Assembly: GCA_030616605.1 (NCBI GenBank)
Contig: JAUWWY010000002.1
Coordinates: 182,867-224,477, forward strand
From: a bacterium
GTDB taxonomy: Bacteria > Patescibacteriota > Minisyncoccia > Minisyncoccales > CG1-02-41-26
Direction of reading: 5' to 3'
DNA: 41,611 bases
The position numbers were made by a program, and so were the translations under genes. Shown here in pieces: positions 7,673-35,777 of the stretch. The notes beneath the pieces are model-generated. The model saw nothing but the letters and a program-made list of their open reading frames with translations, did not search any database and was not told the origin of the DNA. Every line of letters starts with the position of its first letter. Positions within the stretch are counted from its first letter, which is position 1.

Positions 7673-7682
7673 GGTTGTTGGA

Positions 7683-7848
7683 TGCTCGGCAGTCTCTCTC
7701 GCCATCGGACGCGGTCAATTTCCCCAGCGAGGAAATTCCCGCTCCCTCTCGGCCTCGCTCGTCGCCTTCGCCACGTCAGACGTGGCTTCGGCGACACCAT
7801 GCTCGCTCGGCCTGCGAGAGGCCTATGTCAAGAAAGCTGCCTCGCTTA
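7683..7848 (-). repeat. GC-rich modular palindromic repeat, copy 1 (upstream of topA)
   Basis: Minus strand nearly identical over its length to 32453-32596 (+), with an extra ~20 bp palindrome at 7763-7788. Confidence 0.93.
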
Positions 7849-10364: not shown

Positions 10365-11714
10365 ATGGTAAAATTTCAATCACCAACTGGAATGCGCGAT
10401 CTTCTTGAGGAAGATTTTAAACATTTTCAAAAGATTGAAAGAGTTTGTCAAGAAATAGCAAGATTTTATGGTTTTAAGAGAATCGAAACTCCAATTTTAG
10501 AAGAAAGTGCACTCTTTGAGAAAGGAACCGGTTTTAGCACTGAAATTGTCAAAAAGCAGATGTTTAACTTAGAAACCAAAGGAGGAGACCATTTAGTTTT
10601 AAGGCCGGAAGGAACACCCTCGATTGTTCGAGCCTATCTTGAAAAAGGAATGGAAAGTTTGCCAAAGCCAGTTAAGCTTTGGCATTTTGGTCCCTTTTTC
10701 AGGCATGAAAGACCTCAAGCAGGAAGATACCGCCAGTTTTATCAAGCCGGACTTGAATCTTTAGGTAGTGATTCTTGGATTATAGATTCTCAAATTATCC
10801 AAATTTTTTATAATATATTAAAGAGTCTCGGTTTCAAAAATTTAATCGTTGAGATAAACAGCATCGGTGATTCTCAACACAGGGCTTACTACAAAAAAAA
10901 TTTAGTAAGCTATTTAAAAGATTACCGTAACTCTCTTTGTTCAGATTGTAAAAGGAGATTGCGGGAAAATCCCTTAAGAATTTTAGATTGTAAACAAGAG
11001 AAGTGTCAAAAAATTATCAGAGACGGGACTCCTCAGATTATTGATTATCTTTGTAGAAAATGTAATAATCATTTTAAAAATGTCTTAGAAACCTTGGAAG
11101 AATTAGAGATTTCTTACAAGTTGAATCCTTATTTAGTCCGAGGATTAGATTATTATACCAGAACCGTTTTTGAGATTTTTGAAGAAACAGAACCCACCTT
11201 TTTACCCACCAAAGCCACGTCTGACGTGGCGAAGGCGGGCGCCAGGGATACAGAGAGCGAGGAAGAGAAGAATCAGGAGCCCTTAGCTTTAGCTGGAGGG
11301 GGAAGATACGATGATTTAGTGAAATTATTAGGGGGAAAAGAGACACCGGCTTGCGGTGGCGCTTTAGGAGTAGATAGAATAGTTAATTTAATAAAAAAAA
11401 GAACTAAAAAAACTCGGAAAATTATCAAACATAGAATTTTCTTAGCTCAGATAGGAAAATTTCCCAAAATGAAAGCTTTAAAATTGATGGAAAAGTTTAG
11501 AAAATCTGAAATTAAAATAGCCGAAGCTTTGGATAAAGATTCACTTTCGAGTCAATTGAAATTAGCTGATAAATTGAAGGCTGAATATGTTTTAATTTTG
11601 GGTCAAAAAGAGACCCTTGAAGAAAAAATAATTTTAAGGAATATGAAAACGGGTAAGCAGAAGATAATAGCGATAAAAAAAATAGTTGGAGAAGTTAAAA
11701 AGAAAACAAAATAA
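10365..11714 (+). CDS. hisS: Histidyl-tRNA synthetase with repeat-derived in-frame insertion
   Basis: LRPEGTPSIVRAYLEKG, VRGLDYYTRTVFEI, LAGGGRYDDLVKLLGG motifs; insertion between the last two. Confidence 0.95.
   Translation: MVKFQSPTGMRDLLEEDFKHFQKIERVCQEIARFYGFKRIETPILEESALFEKGTGFSTEIVKKQMFNLETKGGDHLVLRPEGTPSIVRAYLEKGMESLPKPVKLWHFGPFFRHERPQAGRYRQFYQAGLESLGSDSWIIDSQIIQIFYNILKSLGFKNLIVEINSIGDSQHRAYYKKNLVSYLKDYRNSLCSDCKRRLRENPLRILDCKQEKCQKIIRDGTPQIIDYLCRKCNNHFKNVLETLEELEISYKLNPYLVRGLDYYTRTVFEIFEETEPTFLPTKATSDVAKAGARDTESEEEKNQEPLALAGGGRYDDLVKLLGGKETPACGGALGVDRIVNLIKKRTKKTRKIIKHRIFLAQIGKFPKMKALKLMEKFRKSEIKIAEALDKDSLSSQLKLADKLKAEYVLILGQKETLEEKIILRNMKTGKQKIIAIKKIVGEVKKKTK
11212..11237 (+). repeat. 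26-bp palindromic module inside hisS, identical to the module nested at 7763-7788 (minus strand)
   Basis: AAGCCACGTCTGACGTGGCGAAGGCG at both loci. Confidence 0.9.
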
Positions 11715-32411: not shown

Positions 32412-32452
32412 AGGCTTTGGTCTGAAAATCCGAGTCCTGAACTTGTCGAAGG

Positions 32453-32596
32453 GCGAAGGCAGATCTCTTGCCATAGGCCTCTCGGAGGCCGAGCGGGCAT
32501 GGTGTCGCCGAAGGCGACGAGCGAGGCCGAGAGGGAGCGGCAATTTTCTCGCTGGGGAAATTGACCGCGTCCGATGGCGGGAGAGACTGCCGAGCA
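32453..32596 (+). repeat. GC-rich modular palindromic repeat, copy 2 (upstream of pgk)
   Basis: Matches the minus strand of 7683-7848 apart from the nested palindrome and scattered substitutions. Confidence 0.93.
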
Positions 32597-32612
32597 CTTA
32601 ACAGTTTTTAAC

Positions 32613-35418: not shown

Positions 35419-35777
35419 AGTTCAAGTAGGCAAGGCAACCGCCCTTTACCTTTAGTTAAAGGTGAAGGGAGGAAAGTCCGAACACTCATTCCATTTGGTC
35501 TAAAAAAGTAGCGGGTAACACCCGTCGCTAGTAATGGTAGAGGTGCGAACAGAGACGTGCGAGGCCGAAAGGCCGAGCACCCCGTCGAATGACGGGGCAG
35601 TCCTCGAGTAATCGAGGGGTGAAACGGCTAAATCCTTACTGGGTGCAAGAAGAAACTCTTTGGACATTCTCCGGATTTGCCCAAAGAGAAAAAGTGCTTC
35701 GCTAGAGCCAAGGAGTAATCTTTGGCCCAGATAAATGGTTGTCCTCGACAGAATTCGGCTTATTGCCTGCTTGAACT
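35419..35777 (+). ncRNA. rnpB: RNase P RNA (bacterial)
   Basis: AGTTCAAGTAGGCAAGGCAACCGCC ... GGGAGGAAAGTCCGAACAC ... ACAGAATTCGGCTTATTGCCTGCTTGAACTT; closing helix GTTCAAG/CTTGAAC. Confidence 0.96.

What the first reader, a model, noticed from the sequence alone, without database searches (positions are those of the whole stretch)
7763..7788. Nested palindromic module inserted within the topA-side repeat
Aligned to the pgk copy, the topA copy carries about 20 extra bp (CCACGTCTGACGTGGCGAAG) between GCCGAAG and GCGACGAG, leaving GAAG on both sides. The two copies therefore capture an insertion event: a smaller palindrome has moved into, or been lost from, a larger palindromic element. The GAAG duplication may be a target-site duplication.
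Basis: seen in the sequence. Interest (0 to 1): 0.7.

Follow-up and report, generated by a model that had tools for sequence, protein, structure and literature searches.

The report
Mobile mini-palindrome nested in hairpin loops
A 15-letter palindrome has inserted itself into the tip of a larger DNA hairpin next to topA, copying the tip's few letters on both sides; the same tiny element does this in many Patescibacteria (ultra-small uncultured bacteria), sometimes in frame inside essential genes, so it behaves like one of the smallest mobile DNAs I know of, moved by an enzyme not yet found.

Summary
At 7766-7790 (+) the topA-side repeat reads CTTCG-CCACGTCAGACGTGG-CTTCG. The pgk copy, and tips of the same outer repeat in other genomes of the order, have a single CTTCG: a clean 20-bp insertion. 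The duplication is 5 bp (CGAAG), not GAAG. The module occurs elsewhere: four copies in this genome, one in frame in hisS; at most about 2% of sampled genomes in its order, class or phylum; and 25 of 83 genomes in the Roizmanbacteria order. Among 53 unbiased perfect copies, 23 have direct repeats of 5 bp or more (permuted mean 1.8). In 17 of 17 distinct sites the repeat's ends are complementary (25% expected; P=8e-11): the duplicated bases are a 3-4-nt hairpin loop plus its closing pair, mostly very stable GNA/GNNA mini-hairpin loops. The core GTC[A/T]GAC is constant while outer arms covary (CCAC, CCGA, CCAA, GGAC). Filled and empty orthologous sites exist (20 bp; 21 bp in frame in dnaE; 7 residues in glgA). 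So it is a non-autonomous palindromic micro-element targeting hairpin loops. The enzyme is unknown; Y1 (RAYT) transposases were not found in two multi-copy carriers. It resembles REPs, MITEs and mitochondrial GC clusters but meets no full definition.

The parts
7771..7785 (.). Inserted micro-element: 15-bp perfect palindrome CCACGTC-A-GACGTGG (core GTCAGAC)
   Evidence: the same 15-mer in other Patescibacteria
7766..7770 (+). First copy of the duplicated target CTTCG (CGAAG on the - strand): GAA triloop plus its C-G closing pair
   Evidence: single in the pgk copy and in relatives; direct-repeat statistics
7786..7790 (+). Second copy of the duplicated target CTTCG
7761..7795 (.). Tip hairpin of the outer repeat (GTCGC...GCGAC stem) with the inserted element; folds as one 35-nt hairpin with a symmetric TTC/TTC internal loop, -13.3 kcal/mol versus -5.5 for the empty tip
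7676..7842 (.). Outer palindromic repeat, filled copy, just upstream of the probable topA start
32457..32603 (.). Outer palindromic repeat, empty copy upstream of the probable pgk start; single CGAAG at 32509-32513 between GTCGC and GCGAC
11215..11229 (.). Second copy of the micro-element in the window, in frame inside hisS (peptide ATSDVA), flanked by CAAAG 11210-11214 and CGAAG 11230-11234, in a loop of about 30 residues that solved HisRS structures and most family members lack

Best explanation
The module is a non-autonomous palindromic micro-element, 15 bp long with core GTC[A/T]GAC. It inserted into the 3-nt loop at the tip of an older, larger hairpin repeat and duplicated the loop plus its closing base pair (CGAAG). 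Shown: the insertion, its likely direction (gain), its clean boundaries, the 5-6-bp duplication, the preference for loops of pre-existing hairpins (especially C-GNA-G and C-GNNA-G), covarying arms, and dispersal across distant Patescibacteria. Inferred: when DNA is single-stranded or extruded as a cruciform, an enzyme supplied in trans cuts the two strands on either side of the exposed loop with a 5-6-base stagger, joins the palindrome in, and gap repair makes the duplication. Recognition would be of DNA shape (hairpin target, palindromic donor) more than of sequence. The enzyme is not identified.
For: Clean 20-bp insert with a CTTCG duplication against the pgk copy and the empty tips of the outer repeat, which was found in 31 of 247 genomes of the order. 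23 of 53 unbiased copies have direct repeats of 5 bp or more, permuted mean 1.8, maximum 7 in 2000; 17 of 17 distinct contexts have complementary repeat ends and 14 of 17 a stem of 2 bp or more (P=8e-11 and 5e-14). None of 55 viral contigs with the chance 15-mer has a repeat of 5 bp or more. Of 330 distinct 15-bp palindromes in Patescibacteria DNA, the 22 with a repeat all have the GTCAGAC core; three of these have other, covarying arms and were not selected by my searches (Fisher P=2e-4). Filled/empty orthologous pairs: L168/L154, 20 bp inside a hairpin loop; L146/L310, 21 bp in frame in dnaE. Seven-residue insert in GlgA. 16 of 20 distinct duplicated targets are GNA/GNNA loops (9 of the 20 come from contigs found by the scan that fixed part of the flank), a class of very stable DNA mini-hairpins (PMC4686876).
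Against: No transposase or autonomous relative was tied to the element. 30 of the 53 unbiased copies have no exact repeat of 5 bp or more (decayed, composite or chance copies). The duplication length varies (5 or 6; about 12 in L048). The CGAAAG copies of one genome may be a single composite spread as a CGTC-type REP rather than separate insertions. The nine loci were found with a pattern that fixed part of the flanking repeat. The exact boundary of the hisS copy is not resolved, and 20 bp alone would shift its frame.
Confidence: 0.6

Rival explanations
1. It is a REP mobilised by a RAYT/Y1 (IS200/IS605-like) transposase by single-strand peel-and-paste, CGAAG being the enzyme's target or guide sequence.
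For: Hairpin element. Y1 genes in 14 of 19 carriers and 11 of 13 Roizmanbacteria-order carriers searched. Palindromes with a GTC[A/T]GAC core flank Y1 genes at both ends in L129 and L144. Single-stranded hairpin targets fit single-strand chemistry.
Against: The duplicated target varies (CGAAG, CGTAG, CGAAAG, CTGTG, CCGCG, TCGAA), and known Y1 transposition makes no target duplication (own knowledge). Both orientations occur relative to the GNA strand, 8 to 8. No GTAG/CGTC tag. No Y1 gene found in G1006 or G941, which have many copies, nor in G220. Palindromes repeated at both ends were seen at 21 of the 50 Y1 loci, with many different cores; only 2 share GTCAGAC. The Y1 gene of the window's own genome is flanked by a different hairpin.
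Confidence: 0.15
2. It is the remnant (two fused terminal inverted repeats plus target duplication) of a larger insertion sequence that targets REP loops.
For: Inverted ends with a 5-6-bp duplication is what an IS deletion or excision footprint would look like, and several IS families insert specifically into REPs (PMC1525189).
Against: No full-length element with such ends and matching repeats in the loci examined. The same 15 bp recurs in unrelated genomes. The outer 4 bp vary while the centre is constant, the reverse of what conserved IS ends would give.
Confidence: 0.15
3. It arises without a transposase, by replication template switching or gene conversion between hairpin tips, so that a favoured tip sequence is copied into other loops.
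For: Perfect arms with covariation are expected from quasi-palindrome correction. Tips of the outer repeat are hypervariable between species. Loop duplication resembles slippage.
Against: The same 15 bp appears in unrelated hairpins and genera with a regular 5-6-bp duplication, and in frame in genes without a large host palindrome (glgA, dnaE).
Confidence: 0.12
4. The event is a loss: the larger tip is ancestral and 20 bp were deleted between the CGAAG repeats.
For: Deletion of a hairpin between short direct repeats is common in bacteria (general knowledge).
Against: The family's other 23 genomes lack the 15-mer within one mismatch, and the same outer tip is empty across other genomes of the order. 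The filled state is the rare, derived one.
Confidence: 0.05
5. Ordinary intergenic hairpin or terminator; the resemblance between sites is chance.
For: Some 15-mer hits are terminator-like palindromes without direct repeats (for example L012, L013, L064, L069).
Against: Flanking duplications at 23 of 53 copies against 0 of 55 viral chance hits, and zero hits for the reversed pattern in the family, order, class and phylum surveys.
Confidence: 0.03

Closest known systems
REP / BIME / REPIN elements (GTAG- and CGTC-tagged) and RAYT transposases (PMC3733652, PMC2817692, PMC3116915, PMC6006769)
   Same: Short dispersed palindromes, sometimes intragenic; several of the hairpins invaded here look like CGTC-type REPs (GTCATTCCCGCGAAAGCGGGAATCCAG).
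   Different: No unpaired GTAG or CGTC tag; 15 bp; flanked by target duplications; low copy number; no cognate transposase identified.
Insertion sequences that target REP palindromes (IS1397, ISKpn1, IS621, ISPsy8, ISPpu9/10; PMC1525189)
   Same: Choose palindromic repeats as targets; ISPsy8 makes a short direct repeat.
   Different: Those are full elements with transposase genes; here the insert has no coding capacity of its own and the preferred point is a hairpin loop whose bases are duplicated.
Rickettsia palindromic elements (RPE), palindromes inserted in genes
   Same: Palindromic inserts in frame inside protein genes (hisS, dnaE, glgA, argC-like, rpsS here).
   Different: RPEs are much larger (about 100-150 bp, own knowledge) or carry the CGTC tag (RPE-4 and RPE-6, PMC3733652); here 15 bp plus duplication.
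MITEs (PMC10969869)
   Same: Non-autonomous, inverted ends, target-site duplication.
   Different: Far smaller, with no interior, no parent element found, and conserved centre instead of conserved ends.
GC clusters of yeast mitochondrial DNA and palindromic repeats of Volvox organelle DNA (PMC4478555, PMC2670323)
   Same: Short mobile-looking palindromes with unknown mobilising enzyme; yeast clusters are GC-rich in an AT-rich genome with putative short target duplications, and Volvox repeats are often inserted in one another.
   Different: Organellar, 42 nt or about 50 nt, unrelated sequence; in the passages I read a loop-specific target was not described.

Membership tests
GTAG/CGTC-tagged REP | Unpaired GTAG or CGTC tetranucleotide at one foot of the hairpin | tested here: not met
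   Flanks vary between copies (CGAAG, CGAAAG, CGTAG, CTGTG, CCGCG, TCGAA) and are duplicated on both sides
GTAG/CGTC-tagged REP | GTAG REPs: association with a flanking RAYT gene | tested here: not met
   At the fetched Y1 loci of carriers the CCACGT hairpin was seen once, among other REPs at G680; no Y1 gene found in G1006, G941, G220, G262, G268 or G804. Not every Y1 locus of every carrier was fetched
MITE | Inverted termini plus constant-length target-site duplication | tested here: inconclusive
   Palindrome with 5- or 6-bp duplication; length not strictly constant, about 12 bp in L048
MITE | Derivation from an autonomous DDE transposon with the same ends | tested here: inconclusive
   No separated CCACGTC...GACGTGG ends with matching repeats in about 350 kb of Patescibacteria loci; whole genomes not scanned for this
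Rickettsia palindromic element | In-frame insertion of a palindrome in protein genes | tested here: met
   hisS, glgA, dnaE, argC-like, PMT-like and rpsS extension
Rickettsia palindromic element | Large (about 100-150 bp) element, or CGTC tag for RPE-4/6 | tested here: not met
   Insert is 15 bp plus a 5-6-bp duplication, untagged
IS that targets REPs | Transposase gene inside the inserted DNA | tested here: not met
   The insert is 15 bp
Mobile organellar palindromes (GC clusters) | Experimentally or strain-level shown mobility | not testable with these tools
   One genome per species is held; only between-species filled/empty pairs were available

The most novel reading that the evidence does not exclude
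A transposition system of Patescibacteria that reads DNA shape: it inserts perfect palindromes as short as 15 bp into the 3-4-nt loops of existing hairpins, duplicating loop and closing pair, and so builds nested hairpins step by step, in intergenic repeats and in frame in essential genes. Unrelated palindromes at the same kind of site (L302:15653, L052:6322, L153:2937) would be further substrates of the same machinery.
Probability: 0.3. Interest if true: 0.85.

Novelty: new variant of a known kind. Interest (0 to 1): 0.62.

Why it matters
It would be among the smallest mobile DNAs known, with a target rule (hairpin loop plus closing pair) that explains how bacterial palindromic repeats become nested and lengthen. 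It gives filled and empty sites that make the old question of how REP-like palindromes spread directly testable, and it shows hyper-streamlined genomes tolerating palindromic inserts inside DNA polymerase and a tRNA synthetase. An enzyme that inserts short DNA at structure-defined sites would be of wide interest if found.

Tried and rejected
(1) A simple GAAG duplication: the repeat is CGAAG here and other 5-6-mers elsewhere. (2) A fixed IS200-like target sequence: targets vary and orientation is 8 to 8. (3) RAYT-cognate REP: weakened by Y1-less multi-copy carriers and by the variety of cores at Y1 loci. (4) A parent IS with CCACGTC ends: scan of about 350 kb found none. (5) Viral origin: the 55 viral 15-mer hits look like chance, none with a repeat of 5 bp or more. 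(6) The CCACGTTTGACGTGG hairpins preceded by GC(G)NNAG in Roizmanbacteria-order genomes mostly lack duplications and may be a separate REP family; not pursued. (7) Known RNA: Rfam gives nothing at the site. (8) Literature searches found no description in Patescibacteria; the library is open-access papers only.

Full report
What is there. Upstream of topA lies a GC-rich repeat (7676-7842) with a second copy upstream of pgk on the other strand (32457-32603) and a third at contig C4:4928-5079. The topA copy differs from the pgk copy by one clean 20-bp insertion: GTCGC-CTTCG-CCACGTCAGACGTGG-CTTCG-GCGAC against GTCGC-CTTCG-GCGAC.

Gain, not loss. The outer repeat was found in 31 of 247 genomes of the order. 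Where a relative has the same tip (GCCTTCGGC) it has a single CTTCG (for example L275, L278, L279, L282, L284). The 15-mer is absent within one mismatch from the 23 other genomes of the family. The filled tip is therefore the rare, derived state.

The module is dispersed. The own genome has four copies: the finding; one inside hisS at 11215-11229, in frame (ATSDVA), in a stretch of about 30 residues that solved HisRS structures and most family members lack; and two on contig C7 near gene ends, one of them with one base changed. The 15-mer occurs exactly in 5 of 384 genomes of the class and 8 of 380 of the phylum (own genome counted), with none for the reversed pattern, and with up to one mismatch in 25 of 83 genomes of the order holding a Roizmanbacteria hit, with more than ten copies in some genomes (reversed-pattern control 3 hits). 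An exact 23-mer scan of 84,980 species gave nine stretches of DNA, eight of them in named Patescibacteria lineages and one in an unclassified bacterium, L053; that genome (G943) falls in the same order sample.

It carries target duplications, and the target is a hairpin loop. In copies found with no condition on flanks, 23 of 53 have an exact direct repeat of 5 bp or more touching the palindrome (permuted flanks: mean 1.8, maximum 7 of 2000). In all 17 distinct contexts the first and last base of the repeat are complementary (25% at random positions; P=8e-11), and in 14 the pairing continues outward in the reconstructed empty site (7% at random; P=5e-14) (flanks were joined only in script). 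The duplicated bases are thus the 3- or 4-nt loop plus closing pair of a hairpin that was there before: GTCGCC-TTC-GGCGAC here; the CGTC-type REP GTCATTCCCGC-GAAA-GCGGGAATCCAG in the Roizmanbacteria order, whose empty form is also seen in the same genome. 16 of 20 distinct targets are C-GNA-G or C-GNNA-G, though 9 of the 20 come from contigs found by the scan that fixed AAG/CGAAG. These loops form the very stable DNA mini-hairpins d(GCGAAGC) and d(GCGAAAGC) (PMC4686876). After insertion the whole folds as one longer hairpin. None of the 55 viral contigs with the same 15-mer has a repeat of 5 bp or more, so the 15-mer by chance does not bring duplications with it.

Orthologous filled and empty sites. 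L168 has a 20-bp insert, TTTGA-CCACGTCAGACGTGG-TTTTA, in the loop of a TCACGT...ACGTGA hairpin that is empty in L154. L146 (dnaE; PF07733, PF17657, PF14579) has a 21-bp in-frame insert that L310 lacks. L204 (a semialdehyde dehydrogenase, argC-like) has a 39-bp composite that L295 lacks. GlgA of G220 has seven extra residues, TFDVALA, against E. coli GlgA; its C-terminally extended ribosomal protein S19 also holds a copy.

What is constant. Of 330 distinct 15-bp palindromes with a single central base in the Patescibacteria DNA held, 22 have a direct repeat and all 22 have the core GTC[A/T]GAC; 0 of 263 others do. Nineteen have CCAC arms (what I searched for), but three found without selection have CCGA, CCAA and GGAC arms, perfectly paired (Fisher P=2e-4). 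The core and the pairing are kept, the outer arms vary. Three unrelated palindromes sit in the same kind of site with the same kind of repeat (L302:15653, L052:6322, L153:2937).

How it may work. The data require something that places a palindrome in an exposed hairpin loop and duplicates the loop. A staggered double-strand cut across the tip by a trans-acting enzyme, with gap repair, is the simplest reading and fits the equal orientations (8 to 8). It is inferred. Single-strand RAYT transposition is the main rival: Y1 genes are common in carriers, and at two Y1 loci the flanking palindromes share the core; but no Y1 gene was found in G1006 or G941, which have many copies, most Y1 loci have other palindromes, and known Y1 transposition makes no duplication. 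A fused-ends remnant of a larger IS and transposase-free copying between tips are not excluded.

Limits. Of the 53 unbiased copies, 30 have no exact repeat. Some multi-copy cases in one genome may be one composite amplified as a REP. The loci were found with part of the flank fixed. The hisS boundary is unresolved. The genomes are mostly metagenome assemblies, one per species, so absence of a gene and within-species mobility could not be tested.

Verdict. It works like known mobile palindromes (REP, MITE, mitochondrial GC clusters) but meets no family's full definition.

Noticed in passing
G000 contig C4:35618-35935 (locus L130): The only Y1 (RAYT-like) transposase gene found in the genome is flanked by, and contains, copies of a different hairpin (CACCGTCCCGACCGGTG), also present in neighbouring repetitive sequence.
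   Followed up: partly
window 7676-7842, 32457-32603; relatives L266-L294: The outer repeat is widespread in the order (31 of 247 genomes) with conserved arms and a hypervariable hairpin tip, as if tips are swapped or extended repeatedly.
   Followed up: partly
L302:15653, L052:6322, L153:2937: Three palindromes unrelated to GTC[A/T]GAC (22, 20 and 17 bp) are flanked by CTTCG or CGGAG direct repeats, the same kind of site.
   Followed up: no
L146, L147, L172, L182, L183, L186, L189, L191, L195, L196, L207, L208, L234: In Roizmanbacteria-order genomes CCACGTTTGACGTGG is often preceded by GC(G)NNAG and followed by T, mostly without a direct repeat: perhaps a separate REP-like family.
   Followed up: partly
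L129 (G944) and L144 (G753): RAYT genes bounded on both sides, and containing further copies, of AAGGTCAGACCTT or GCAAGGGTCTGACCCTTGC palindromes.
   Followed up: partly
window 32434-32452: A palindrome-like segment, GTCCTGAACTTGTCGAAGG, lies next to the pgk-side repeat.
   Followed up: no
window 35423-35777: RNase P class A RNA gene (Rfam RF00010); with four tRNA genes, the only curated RNA matches in the window.
   Followed up: no
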